In this document: piece after piece, positions 2,490 through 13,161 of the stretch
Layout: each line of letters starts with the position of its first letter
How positions within the stretch are numbered: position 1 is the stretch's first letter
From: Microbispora sp. H11081
GTDB taxonomy: Bacteria > Actinomycetota > Actinomycetes > Streptosporangiales > Streptosporangiaceae
Assembly: GCF_012999535.1 (NCBI RefSeq)
Contig: NZ_JABBWV010000003.1
Coordinates: 146,439-210,438, forward strand
Direction of reading: 5' to 3'
Length of the DNA: 64,000 nucleotides
Notes under the pieces: model-generated
What the model was told of the DNA's origin: nothing
The model's database searches: none
What the model saw: only the letters and a program-made list of their open reading frames with translations
Made by a program: the position numbers and the translations under genes

Positions 2490-3212
2490 CTAGAAGTGCT
2501 GGCTGTTCGCGTCGTCGCAGGAGATGGCGAGCACGCCGTCGATCTCGGCCAGCCTGCTCGTGAGGTCGCCGATCGAGCCGGGGCCGTGGAGCAGCAGGGT
2601 GACCATGACCGTGCCGGTGTCCTGCCCGCGGGTGGGCTGCTCCAGCGACAGTTCGTCGACCACGAAACGGCGGCCCGTGCACTCGGCCAGGGCCCGCCGC
2701 AGCACGCCCCGGCCGTCCGCGTACGACAGGCGCAGCCGCGACTGCGCGTGCCGGGAACGGGGGAGCCGGGCGGCCAGCGGGGTGAGCCCGAGCATCACGA
2801 CGAAGTTCCCCACCGTGGCGAGGACGGCGAGCAGCCACAGGCCGGCGCCCGCGGCCATGCCGACTCCGGCGGTGAGCCACACGGCGGCGGCGGTGGTCAG
2901 CCCCTTGACCGCGTCGCGGCGTACGAAGATCAGCCCGCCGCCGATGAAGCCGATGCCGGAGACGATCTGGGCGGCCACCCGCGACGGATCGAGCACCACG
3001 CCGTCGCCGAGCACGTCGGAGAAGCCGTATTTGGACACGAGCATGAACAGCGCGGCGCCGAACCCCACGAGCGTGTGGGTGCGCAACCCGGCGCTCTTCT
3101 GCCGGATCTCCCGCTCCAGGCCGATGGCCGCCGAGAGCACGAGCGCGATGACGAGGTCCACGGCCGGCTGCCACCACGCCACGGGACTCACCATGAGTGA
3201 GATCGGCATCAC
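2490..3212 (-). CDS. MgtC/SapB family membrane protein
   Basis: A 240-aa protein with the MgtC domain: hydrophobic segments at about residues 15-35, 45-65, 80-97, 105-120 and 125-145, the conserved stretch GLERE (31-35), and the glycine-rich GIGFIGGGLIF near 86-96. The C-terminal third is a soluble ACT-like domain, as in longer MgtC proteins. MgtC proteins promote survival in low Mg2+ and modulate F-type ATPase in pathogens; in free-living actinomycetes the role is less clear. No M-box is visible in the short region upstream, but an M-box lies 10 kb away in this window (12981-13122), so Mg2+ homeostasis may be handled at both loci. Confidence 0.88.
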   Translation of the reverse strand: MMPISLMVSPVAWWQPAVDLVIALVLSAAIGLEREIRQKSAGLRTHTLVGFGAALFMLVSKYGFSDVLGDGVVLDPSRVAAQIVSGIGFIGGGLIFVRRDAVKGLTTAAAVWLTAGVGMAAGAGLWLLAVLATVGNFVVMLGLTPLAARLPRSRHAQSRLRLSYADGRGVLRRALAECTGRRFVVDELSLEQPTRGQDTGTVMVTLLLHGPGSIGDLTSRLAEIDGVLAISCDDANSQHF

Positions 3213-11287: not shown

Positions 11288-12498
11288 CAGCACCGGTCGT
11301 CGAGGGCCTGCTGCGTGAGCTCACGCCGCAGGTCCTCGGCGCGCTGGTACGCCGGCACGGCCGGTTCGAGGGGTGCGAGGACGCCGTGCAGGAGGCCGTT
11401 CTCGCCGCCGCCGTGCAGTGGCCGGTCGAGGGAGTGCCGGACAACCCGCGTGGCTGGCTGTCGACCGTGGCGTCCCGGCGGCTCATCGACCAGATGCGCA
11501 GCGACCAAGCGCGCCGTGAGCGGGAGTCGGTGACGGCCGCCGTCGAGGTGATGCCGGAGGACGTGCCGGACACCGACGACACGCTCGTCCTGCTCTTTCT
11601 GTGCTGCCATCCCACGCTGACCGCGGCCTCCCAGGTCGCCCTGACGCTGCGGGCGGTCGGCGGCCTGACCACCGCCGAGATCGCCCGCGCGTTCCTGGTG
11701 CCGGAGGCCACGATGGCGGCCAGGATCAGCCGGGCCAAGCAGCGCGTCAAAGCCGCCGGGAGCTCGTTCGGCCTGCCGGACGGCGCGGAGCTCCAGGAGC
11801 GGCTCCGGGTCGTCCTGCACGTGCTCTACCTGATCTTCAACGAGGGCTACACCGCCTCCTCGGGCAGCGATCTGCACCGCGCCGACCTCGCGAACGAAGC
11901 GATCCGGCTGGCCCGGATGGTGCAGGCCCAGCTGCCCGGCGACGGCGAGGTCACCGGGCTGCTCGCGCTGATGTTGCTGACCCACGCCCGCAGAGAGGCA
12001 CGTACGGATCCGGCCGGCGATCTGGTGCCGCTCGACGAGCAGGACCGCACGAAGTGGGACCGCGGGCTGGTGGACGAGGGCGTCGAGCTGATCAAGGCGG
12101 CGCTGGGCGGCCCGGCGCTGGGGCCGTACCAGCTCCAGGCCGCCATCGCCGCCACGCATGCCGACGCGGCCACGGCCGAGGAGACCGATTGGCCGCAGGT
12201 GCACGCCCTCTATCTGATCCTGGAGCGGATCGCGCCCAACCCGATGGTCACCCTCAACCGGGCGATCGCGCTCGCCGAGATCGAGGGCCCGGAGGCCGGG
12301 CTGGCCTTGTTGTCCACGTTGGACGGTGACGAGCGGTTGGCCGGGCATCACCGGTTGCTGTCCGTGCGCGCGCATCTGCTGGAGAAGACCGGCGACAGGG
12401 CCGGGGCGTACGAGCACTACCGGCGGGCCGCGAGGTCCACCGCCAGCATGGCCGAGCGGCGCTACCTGGAGTCCCGGGCCGGCCGGGTGAGGGCGTAG
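11284..12498 (+). CDS. ECF42 family RNA polymerase sigma factor with C-terminal TPR-like extension
   Basis: A 404-aa sigma factor, far longer than a standard 190-aa ECF. Region 2 lies at about 15-80 (EDAVQEAVL) and region 4 at about 100-155 (TTAEIARAFLVPEATMAARISRAK). The remaining 240 residues form the helical extension of the ECF42 group (DUF6596 and TPR-like), including FNEGYTAS. ECF42 sigmas have no anti-sigma; the C-terminal extension is thought to be required for activity. It is coupled to the upstream DGPF protein, the arrangement that defines the group. Confidence 0.92.
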   Translation: MTAPVVEGLLRELTPQVLGALVRRHGRFEGCEDAVQEAVLAAAVQWPVEGVPDNPRGWLSTVASRRLIDQMRSDQARRERESVTAAVEVMPEDVPDTDDTLVLLFLCCHPTLTAASQVALTLRAVGGLTTAEIARAFLVPEATMAARISRAKQRVKAAGSSFGLPDGAELQERLRVVLHVLYLIFNEGYTASSGSDLHRADLANEAIRLARMVQAQLPGDGEVTGLLALMLLTHARREARTDPAGDLVPLDEQDRTKWDRGLVDEGVELIKAALGGPALGPYQLQAAIAATHADAATAEETDWPQVHALYLILERIAPNPMVTLNRAIALAEIEGPEAGLALLSTLDGDERLAGHHRLLSVRAHLLEKTGDRAGAYEHYRRAARSTASMAERRYLESRAGRVRA

Positions 12499-12508
12499 CC
12501 CCGGGCCT

Positions 12509-12691
12509 TCAGACCCCCAGCAGGTGCCTGAGGAGCAGCAGCGCGATCTCCAGCCCCAGCCGCAGGCCTGTCCCCGCGTCGGCGGAACCCACCAGCGCGA
12601 GGGCGAGCGGCGTCAGGACGGGGACCAGGACGCGGGCCGTCCTGGCCAGGGTGCGCGGCAGCGTGAACGGCACGGAAATCGTGATCGTCAT
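12509..12691 (-). CDS. Small hydrophobic protein (60 aa) downstream of M-box
   Basis: A 60-aa protein. ATG 12691 is chosen because the minus-strand ribosome site AGGAGG lies 7-8 bp upstream; a longer in-frame version to 12739 has none. Residues 9-22 are basic and amphipathic (two LARTAR-like turns), 23-35 hydrophobic (VLVPVLTPLALAL) and 45-60 hydrophobic again, consistent with one or two short membrane helices. It follows the 49-aa ORF by 44 bp and is the last gene before the convergent ECF42 gene. Both ORFs lie downstream of a predicted Mg2+ riboswitch, suggesting a Mg2+-stress membrane peptide; that function is inference. Confidence 0.6.
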   Translation of the reverse strand: MTITISVPFTLPRTLARTARVLVPVLTPLALALVGSADAGTGLRLGLEIALLLLRHLLGV

Positions 12692-12735
12692 GACGGGACC
12701 TCCTGTCTCGTGCCGGACGGCACGGAGGGAACCCG

Positions 12736-12885
12736 TCACCCGGCCCGGCAGCGGCAGCGGGCGGCGACCGCGCCTGCGGCCCCGGAGCCCCGCGGCATGG
12801 CGCGGAAGGCGCTGCGGAAGGTGCCGAGGAAGGTGCCGAGGAAGGTGACGGGATGGGATGGTGTCGGACTACTGCCGGAAGTCAT
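12736..12885 (-). CDS. Small ORF (49 aa) directly downstream of M-box; possible leader peptide
   Basis: A 49-aa frame with ATG 12885 and a strong ribosome site GAGGAGG (complement of 12894-12900), 8 bp upstream. The N-terminus is Pro-rich early (SPTPSHP at residues 6-12), the middle contains a direct repeat FLGT-FLGT (DNA repeat AAGGTGCCGAGG on the plus strand), and the C-terminus is basic with two Cys. The ribosome site can be sequestered in an ACCTC/GAGGT hairpin (12893-12905). It could be a real peptide or a regulatory leader like the Pro-containing MgtL of enterobacteria. No homologue is recognised. Confidence 0.45.
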   Translation of the reverse strand: MTSGSSPTPSHPVTFLGTFLGTFRSAFRAMPRGSGAAGAVAARCRCRAG

Positions 12886-12980
12886 CCCGACCACCTCCTC
12901 GAGGTCGTACGGCGACACTCATGGCACGGCGGACCGCGCCGGTGGCGCCTGTCGATTCGCACCCCTCACGTAAGAGCTTC

Positions 12981-13122
12981 GGCACCGCGCGGCGTGATCC
13001 CTCAAAGGAAGCCACCTGGGGTCACCCCTTAAGCCGGGGAGACCTGTCCTGACCCGGGGCGTCTCTCGACGAGGAGGGTCAGTGGCCTGTGTCCGCGCGG
13101 ACGCCTCACCGAACGAGGTGCC
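12981..13122 (-). promoter_or_regulatory. M-box (ykoK-type) Mg2+ riboswitch
   Basis: Read on the minus strand, the segment contains the ordered M-box landmarks: GGTGAGGC (13110-13103), a GTCC-GCGC-GGAC hairpin followed by ACA, a GCCACTG...CCC stretch, GAGAGACGCC, GGGTCA, ACAGG, TCTCCCCGGCTTAAGG, and a closing GGTGGC that pairs with GCCAC. The outer stem GGCACC (13122-13117) / GGTGCC (12986-12981) closes it, with two further CG pairs inside. M-box RNAs bind Mg2+ and switch off downstream genes when Mg2+ is plentiful. A promoter lies just upstream (13132-13161); downstream are only the 49-aa and 60-aa ORFs. No U-tract terminator is seen, so control of ribosome-site access is possible. The rest of this 312-bp gap (12886-13197) holds only short hairpins. 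Confidence 0.85.
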
Positions 13123-13131
13123 TGCTCCTCC

Positions 13132-13161
13132 AGTAGAACCCCGGCGGCATGATCGGGTCAA
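13132..13161 (-). promoter_or_regulatory. Promoter for the M-box transcript
   Basis: On the minus strand, -35 TTGACC (complement of 13156-13161) and -10 TCTACT (complement of 13132-13137) are 18 bp apart. The transcript would begin near 13125, immediately before the outer stem of the M-box. Confidence 0.55.

What the first reader, a model, noticed from the sequence alone, without database searches (positions are those of the whole stretch)
12509..13161. M-box Mg2+ riboswitch driving two tiny ORFs (49 and 60 aa)
Seen: the minus strand carries M-box landmarks in order (GGTGAGGC, GAGAGACGCC, GGGTCA, ACAGG, CTTAAGG) with closing helices and a promoter just upstream. Known: M-box RNAs sense Mg2+ and normally control Mg2+ transporters (mgtE, mgtA) or, in mycobacteria, PE/PPE genes. 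Here the only downstream genes are an SPTPSHP-containing 49-aa ORF and a hydrophobic 60-aa ORF; the next gene is convergent. Inference: a Mg2+-starvation membrane peptide system, comparable in idea to enterobacterial MgtL/MgtS/MgtR but unrelated in sequence. MgtC at 2490-3212 may be part of the same response.
Basis: partly seen in the sequence, partly recalled or inferred. Interest (0 to 1): 0.88.

Follow-up and report, generated by a model that had tools for sequence, protein, structure and literature searches.

The report
Magnesium riboswitch with conserved leader peptide
A soil actinomycete (Microbispora) carries a real magnesium-sensing RNA switch followed by two tiny genes: the first belongs to a leader-peptide type that sits after such switches in several actinomycete families, and the second encodes a conserved small two-helix protein that is probably the switch's output.

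Summary
The M-box is real: RF00380, 139.1 bits, E 2.6e-31, window 13124..12956 (-). The two ORFs exist as stated but differ in kind. ORF1 (49 aa) is a leader uORF: 75 of 80 fetched actinomycete M-box loci have a comparably placed SD-led uORF, before unrelated outputs: Nramp, MgtE, CorA, MgtC, PPE, Rv1535-like or ORF2-like. A DNA profile of mycobacterial uORFs alone finds uORFs in other families, the window's included. Its mycobacterial form sits where Rv1805A sits, reported in 2026 as mycobacteria-specific (PMC12810186). ORF2 (60 aa) is a conserved, unnamed family (12 of 15 Microbispora genomes), predicted as a helical hairpin. Six of those 12 lack the M-box yet keep uORF and ORF2, five of them the promoter too. 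In Nramp-type loci the uORF's end pairs, with compensatory changes, to an anti-SD segment, suggesting an MgtQ-like attenuator; folding did not support it and the element is not conserved in Microbispora.

The parts
13132..13161 (-). promoter-like pair: TTGACC (13161-13156), 17-18 nt, TTCTAC/TCTACT (13138-13132)
   Evidence: read; TTGACC and TACTG kept in 11 of 12 Microbispora loci, with and without the M-box (by eye; G153 diverged); consensus scanner found none
12956..13124 (-). M-box (ykoK) Mg2+ riboswitch aptamer, RF00380
   Evidence: cmscan 139.1 bits, E 2.6e-31, full length; the only one found in the genome
12892..12900 (-). Shine-Dalgarno of ORF1 (GAGGAGGTG), inside a possible CGACC...GGTCG hairpin
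   Evidence: invariant in 12 of 12 Microbispora loci
12736..12885 (-). ORF1: 49-aa Rv1805A-type leader uORF (MTSGSSPTPSHPVT...), Pro at position 7
   Evidence: DNA profile of mycobacterial uORFs hits it at E 0.012 in 191 kb, and L009 and L018 of the same genus at 1.8e-5 and 8.3e-5
12733..12738 (-). TGACGG: holds the uORF stop codon, complementary to CCGTCA at the ORF2 start (12696-12691)
   Evidence: invariant in 12 of 12 Microbispora loci, and it holds the uORF stop in 10 of the 12; since it never varies it is no evidence for pairing
12710..12723 (-). GTGCC-gtcc-GGCAC hairpin just upstream of the ORF2 SD
   Evidence: possible in 12 of 12 aligned Microbispora loci with varying loop, two of them with a G-U pair (read by eye)
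12699..12704 (-). Shine-Dalgarno of ORF2 (AGGAGG)
12509..12691 (-). ORF2: 60-aa hydrophobic protein of a conserved family (MTITI...), predicted helical hairpin 13-36/41-58
   Evidence: 21-member alignment, 12 of 15 Microbispora genomes, AF2 pLDDT 81; no NCBIfam match and no Pfam match above cut-off

Best explanation
This is most likely a Mg2+-response leader operon. An M-box senses Mg2+ at the 5' end of a transcript whose first ORF (ORF1) is a cis-acting leader uORF of the type known in mycobacteria as Rv1805A, and whose output is ORF2, a small two-helix protein that takes the place other actinomycetes give to Nramp, MgtE, CorA or MgtC. Shown: the M-box, both ORFs, their conservation, and the swap of outputs behind comparable uORFs. 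Inferred from the known behaviour of M-boxes and of the mycobacterial case: high Mg2+ folds the aptamer and lowers expression by blocking uORF translation and/or by Rho, since no intrinsic terminator was found; low Mg2+ lets the transcript through. Inferred only: translation of ORF1 then tunes ORF2 through RNA pairing between the uORF's end and the ORF2 ribosome-binding region, and ORF2 acts at the membrane, perhaps on a Mg2+ transporter or MgtC.
For: RF00380 E 2.6e-31. uORF assigned in 75 of 80 fetched M-box loci. Mycobacteria-only DNA profile: the first 19 hits in 62 other loci (191 kb) are at the uORF position, one of them the broken uORF of L013, and the first hit elsewhere has E 2.1; with SD and start codon removed the first 10 hits are still all at uORFs, E 0.07 to 0.93. 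Such uORFs precede at least seven different output families (Pfam for representatives), so the uORF goes with the leader, not with one partner protein. Ser codons in uORFs are AGT in 33% against 3% in control ORFs. Nramp-type loci: the uORF-end to anti-SD helix is 94% paired with 18 two-sided changes, 0 of 500 shuffles reaching either. ORF2 family: 21 sequences, invariant MTITI, R20, P24; variable sites by codon position 26/17/32 of 54 each, as in a coding frame.
Against: A protein HMM from the mycobacterial uORFs is weak: the assigned uORF is the best-scoring ORF in only 24 of 61 loci, and a null ORF from an upstream region scores 9.0 against a best of 9.9. Without the SD the window's own uORF is not among the 25 hits printed, and a profile of Nramp-type uORFs hits no Microbispora uORF among the 40 hits printed. 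In Microbispora, freeing the aptamer tail barely changes uORF SD accessibility (0.45 to 0.48; 1 of 6 up). Modelled ribosome positions do not switch the main SD, and uORF-intergenic duplexes are not clearly stronger than shuffles in the Nramp (mean z -0.39) and ORF2 (-0.29) groups. 6 of 12 ORF2-bearing Microbispora genomes have no M-box. ORF2 constraint is modest (pN/pS about 0.6 within clades, 0.81-0.87 between).
Confidence: 0.6

Rival explanations
1. ORF1 works as a peptide in trans (a regulator or transporter subunit), as proposed for Rv1805A, and is the main product of the M-box.
For: PMC12810186 (discussion read) proposes it and reports an M-box-free paralog, Rv0115A. Here too uORF copies exist without the M-box. 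Codons 2-14 have pN/pS 0.67 against 1.58 and 0.99 in the other frames.
Against: Comparable uORFs precede unrelated families, length varies from 23 to 49 aa within one genus, the last 15 codons have pN/pS 2.0, and the conserved part uses rare codons, as if constrained as RNA or for translation speed.
Confidence: 0.2
2. In Microbispora the M-box is a dispensable leftover: ORF2 is an ordinary small membrane protein made from a constitutive promoter, and Mg2+ control is being lost.
For: No M-box in 6 of 12 ORF2-bearing genomes, five of them sharing one deletion junction; none within 1.5 kb upstream in five named records even at E 0.5; two further M-box-less copies in one other genus, g53; no switching predicted in Microbispora.
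Against: Where it is kept, the M-box is close to consensus (133-141 bits in six genomes), which does not look like decay.
Confidence: 0.2
3. One reading: both ORFs are effector membrane peptides of a Mg2+-starvation system.
For: Both ORFs are conserved and ORF2 is hydrophobic.
Against: ORF1 is variable at its C-terminus and of the leader type seen before many genes; it shows no long hydrophobic stretch by eye.
Confidence: 0.05

Closest known systems
Mycobacterium tuberculosis pe20/rv1535 M-box leaders with uORF2 (Rv1805A, Rv1535A, Rv0115A), PMC12810186
   Same: M-box, no intrinsic terminator, short SD-led uORF with Pro at position 7, then the main gene; M-box-free copies of the uORF also exist.
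   Different: The paper calls the peptide specific for mycobacteria; here the uORF type occurs in other families. Outputs differ (ORF2 family, CorA, MgtC, MgtE). The alpha-SD switch that folds in 11 of 17 mycobacterial loci is not seen in Microbispora.
Salmonella mgtQ (8-aa ORF before mgtB), PMC8092293; also MgtL (recalled)
   Same: Short strong-SD ORF upstream of a Mg2+-response gene, alternative stems sequestering the next SD; acidic codons near the start, as in 28 of 30 Nramp-type and 15 of 16 mycobacterial uORFs.
   Different: No sequence relation seen; here an M-box precedes the ORF. The six M-box-bearing Microbispora uORFs have no acidic residue in codons 2-8 (0 of 6) and carry prolines instead.
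M-box upstream of Nramp-related Mg2+ transporters (NrmT), PMC4072509
   Same: M-box placed before Nramp-like genes.
   Different: The passages seen speak mostly of Clostridia and Deltaproteobacteria and of intrinsic termination; here a uORF and an anti-SD lie between.
MgtS, MgtR, MgtU small proteins (recalled; MgtR and MgtU are mentioned in PMC8092293)
   Same: Small proteins tied to Mg2+ starvation.
   Different: No sequence relation was tested; ORF2 is 60 aa with two predicted helices and its function is untested.

Membership tests
M-box riboswitch (RF00380) | covariance-model match over the whole aptamer | tested here: met
   139.1 bits against cut-off 44, positions 1-169
M-box riboswitch (RF00380) | Mg2+-dependent control of the downstream gene | not testable with these tools
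   needs reporter or RNA-seq
Rv1805A-type M-box uORF | position between M-box and first main gene, with strong SD | tested here: met
   window 12885..12736; 75 of 80 loci
Rv1805A-type M-box uORF | Pro at position 7 in the conserved N-terminus | tested here: met
   MTSGSSP in the window; 11 of 12 Microbispora uORFs (G159 lacks one codon)
Rv1805A-type M-box uORF | sequence homology to the mycobacterial uORFs | tested here: inconclusive
   DNA profile supports it (window E 0.012, best congener 1.8e-5); without the SD best congener 0.07 and window not listed; protein HMM weak. Letters of Rv1805A itself were not seen; mycobacterial loci were recognised by gene context
translational M-box expression platform | aptamer tail frees the uORF SD through an alpha-SD | tested here: not met
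   Microbispora 1 of 6 up, mean 0.45 to 0.48, while mycobacteria 11 of 17 up and 1 down; folding only
MgtQ/MgtL-like attenuator | acidic or proline ribosome-destabilising codons early in the ORF | tested here: inconclusive
   acidic in codons 2-8: Nramp-type 28 of 30, mycobacteria 15 of 16, MgtE 2 of 9, CorA 0 of 3, Microbispora 0 of 6; Microbispora 6 of 6 with Pro in residues 3-12
MgtQ/MgtL-like attenuator | alternative stems that mask or free the next SD | tested here: inconclusive
   covarying helix in Nramp-type loci; folding and duplex tests negative; element not conserved in Microbispora
known protein families for ORF2 | match above a curated cut-off | tested here: not met
   Pfam best DUF6474 E 0.19, below cut-off; NCBIfam none; no PDB fold match at E 0.001

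The most novel reading that the evidence does not exclude
Actinomycetes have a general Mg2+ leader-peptide module: an M-box feeding a Rv1805A-type uORF whose translation, sensitive to ribosome stability at low Mg2+, decides through an anti-SD whether the next gene is made. The module has been plugged into Nramp, MgtE, CorA, MgtC, PPE and a new 60-aa membrane protein family, and in Microbispora it survives as a stand-alone leader after the M-box is deleted.
Probability: 0.3. Interest if true: 0.82.

Novelty: new variant of a known kind. Interest (0 to 1): 0.62.

Why it matters
The function of Rv1805A was left open in 2026 and it was taken as mycobacteria-specific. Finding the same kind of uORF across actinomycete M-box loci, before unrelated genes, and, in Nramp-type loci, with a covarying helix linking its end to the next gene's anti-SD, turns that open question into a simple cis/trans test in harmless laboratory actinomycetes. 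It also adds an unnamed small membrane-type protein family as a candidate Mg2+-starvation output, and natural M-box deletions as ready-made controls.

Tried and rejected
Protein-level homology of the uORFs by HMM: too weak to stand alone, replaced by DNA profiles. A switch by ribosome position on the uORF: mean P(SD unpaired) 0.25/0.24/0.23 in 24 Nramp-type loci (L020 and L021 skipped by the script) and 0.28/0.28/0.22 in 12 ORF2 loci for no ribosome, early, at stop, so no support. General uORF-intergenic duplex strength: Nramp-type 3 of 27, ORF2 2 of 12, mycobacteria 6 of 11 loci with at most 10 of 200 shuffles reaching the value. The covariation test has two measures that did not stand out: pairs with two-sided change (48 of 500 shuffles) and further pair types (374 of 500). 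Intrinsic terminator or consensus promoter in the window leader: none. ORF2 beyond Microbispora in a class sample: none, 6 of 394 genomes and all six this genus (stricter filters); in the family sample 17 of 150, three of them weak (E 2.8e-4, 0.007, 0.009). Nramp in the window's genome: none. Whether ORF2 resembles the small ORFs before mycobacterial Nramp genes was not followed up.

Full report
Observation. The M-box is genuine and complete: RF00380 at 13124..12956 (-), 139.1 bits, E 2.6e-31, the only one found in the genome. Downstream lie ORF1 (12885..12736, 49 aa) and ORF2 (12691..12509, 60 aa), each with a strong SD, and then a convergent gene ending at 12498. A search with Microbispora-like ORF2 sequences returned nine named loci, all Microbispora, and the contig lengths of four of them equal those of congeners in my sample, so the window is a Microbispora.

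Sampling. M-box hits: 38 of 150 genomes of the family, 6 of 15 of the genus, 41 of 297 of the order sample, 26 of 394 of the class sample. Together these list 96 distinct places by my count; I read 80 loci. Left out were 14 further places of the mycobacterial genus g73 and two partial hits. One of the 80 (L077) is below the family cut-off.

ORF1 is a leader uORF. In 75 of 80 loci an SD-led uORF of 19 to 87 aa follows the aptamer. Starts were chosen by hand from listed candidates, and in some (for example L051 to L053) the likeness is loose. The five without are L013 and L058 (no ATG, GTG or TTG at the place), L067 (uORF missing), L069 (no start codon) and L077. To test relatedness without that choice, I built a DNA profile from 17 mycobacterial uORFs only and searched the other 62 loci, 191 kb, both strands: the first 19 hits all fall at the uORF, one of them the degenerate uORF of L013, and the first hit elsewhere has E 2.1. 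Sixteen loci have a uORF hit below E 1. The window scores E 0.012; two congeners 1.8e-5 and 8.3e-5. With SD and start codon left out, the first 10 hits are still all uORFs, at E 0.07 to 0.93, but the window's own is not among the 25 rows printed. A profile of 29 Nramp-type uORFs finds six mycobacterial uORFs at E 0.0025 to 0.17 and then a stray hit at 0.28; it finds no Microbispora uORF in the 40 rows printed. A protein HMM alone is weak. The loci are related to each other, so hits are not independent.

The uORF has a nucleotide signature. Ser is AGT in 33% of 386 Ser codons of 72 distinct uORFs against 3% in 64 control ORFs, and GC3 is 0.66 against 0.80 (some control ORFs may be in a wrong frame, which lowers their GC3). 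In Microbispora, codons 2-14 have pN/pS 0.67 (10 sequences; other frames 1.58 and 0.99), the last 15 codons 2.0 (9 sequences). On small subsets the first figure is 0.32 in five M-box-less and 1.2 in four M-box-bearing genomes, so it is noisy.

Outputs. tblastn of representatives sorts the first hit downstream of the 80 loci into Nramp 30, ORF2 family 12, Rv1535-like 9, MgtE 9, PPE 6, CorA 4, MgtC 3, none 7; in four loci mgtC is a second hit, one of them weak. Pfam confirms representatives of Nramp, MgtE, CorA and MgtC.

ORF2. 21 sequences align with invariant M1-I5, R20 and P24. No NCBIfam family and no Pfam family above cut-off. AlphaFold2 gives a helical hairpin, residues 13-36 and 41-58, pLDDT 81, pTM 0.52, without a PDB match at E 0.001. 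Hydropathy peaks at 2.1 over 21-37 and 1.4 near the C-terminus, so one membrane helix is likely and the second may be amphipathic. pN/pS is 0.46-0.58 within clades and 0.81-0.87 between them; other frames give 1.15 and 1.57 within the genus. I found it only in this family. The window's genome has no Nramp match, while 13 of 15 Microbispora genomes do, none of the listed places adjoining this locus.

The M-box can be lost. ORF2 is in 12 of 15 Microbispora genomes, the M-box in 6 of 15, all six among the 12. The other six keep uORF and ORF2; five share one junction in which the promoter is joined to the last few bases of the aptamer, and G153 differs, its promoter too. In named records, the 1.5 kb upstream of ORF2 shows no M-box even at E 0.5 in M. 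catharanthi, M. bryophytorum, M. hainanensis, M. rosea and M. oryzae, while M. siamensis, M. triticiradicis, M. amethystogenes and M. sp. H13382 have it. Two more copies, L099 and L094, both in genus g53, also have ORF2 with a uORF (read by eye) but no M-box; the genome of L099 has M-boxes elsewhere. This parallels Rv0115A, the M-box-free uORF paralog in PMC12810186.

Mechanism. In 27 Nramp-type loci (26 of the 30, plus L068 with a truncated gene; two without uORF and two mycobacterial ones with another ORF in between were left out) the uORF's end (GGCACGCG, often up to the stop codon) is complementary to a segment (CGCGTGCC) that runs into the anti-SD before the main gene: mean 8.44 of 9 pairs against 7.90 when segments are swapped between loci, 71 of 20000 permutations of the 17 distinct rows reaching the value. 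On 26 distinct rows, 94% of cells pair, with 18 two-sided changes, and 0 of 500 shuffles reach either; slid versions reach at most 70%; two other measures do not stand out (48 and 374 of 500). Part of the segment was picked by a TGCC motif, so the outer pairs are partly by construction; the two-sided changes lie in the inner columns. The anti-SD to SD run also follows the locus: 10 of 3000 permutations. This is the layout of an attenuator like Salmonella mgtQ (PMC8092293: outline, sections 8 and 14 and passages read), where acidic codons promote abortion of translation. Acidic residues stand in codons 2-8 of 28 of 30 Nramp-type uORFs (26 with an Nramp hit plus L062, L063, L068 and L075) and 15 of 16 mycobacterial ones, but in 2 of 9 MgtE, 0 of 3 CorA and 0 of 6 M-box-bearing Microbispora ones. 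Against it: modelled ribosome positions do not switch the SD, duplexes are not clearly stronger than shuffled, and in Microbispora the GGCAC element is not conserved (GGCACG, GGCAGG, GGCGCG or missing). So for the window the attenuator is a hypothesis carried over from relatives.

The switch. Folding reproduces the mycobacterial translational platform of PMC12810186 (abstract, introduction, results and discussion read): freeing the aptamer tail raises uORF SD accessibility in 11 of 17 mycobacterial loci and lowers it in 1; in the 37 loci of the mixed group 11 up and 2 down; in Microbispora 1 of 6 up and none down. No intrinsic terminator was found. Rho is the likely partner by analogy, untested.

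Literature. Searches for M-box with uORF and Mycobacterium, M-box riboswitch with Actinobacteria, ykoK with riboswitch, Actinobacteria and Nramp, MgtL, Rv1805A, uORF with Mg2+ and actinomycetes (10 of 34 listed) and M-box with Nramp gave no listed title or abstract start that describes this uORF outside mycobacteria. Subscription papers and preprints are not held, so this is a limited search. PMC4072509 was seen in passages only.

Verdict. It is a new variant of a known kind: an M-box with a Rv1805A-type leader and a new small-protein output.

Noticed in passing
window 2490-3212 (-): MgtC (PF02308), 9 kb away without M-box; in L051, L053 and L062 an M-box-uORF stands directly before mgtC, and in L064, L066, L071, L074 mgtC is a second hit downstream.
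   Followed up: partly
L066 and L074, downstream of the M-box: MgtE-type loci have a terminator-like hairpin with a T run after the aptamer, and only then the uORF (by eye), so transcriptional and uORF layers may coexist.
   Followed up: no
L090, L098, L099 (genome G052): Three ORF2 copies in one genome, two at contig edges, one with a partly deleted M-box.
   Followed up: partly
L043 and L079: Mycobacterial Nramp-type loci have a small ORF (43 and 59 aa) between uORF and Nramp, starting MTTITF and MTFVV; possible counterpart of ORF2, not tested.
   Followed up: no
L013, L058, L067, L069: M-box loci whose uORF is degenerate or missing: natural controls for the role of the uORF.
   Followed up: no
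window 12499-12508: ORF2 and the convergent gene (a sigma-factor-like protein, by eye) end 10 bases apart, with no terminator found there.
   Followed up: no
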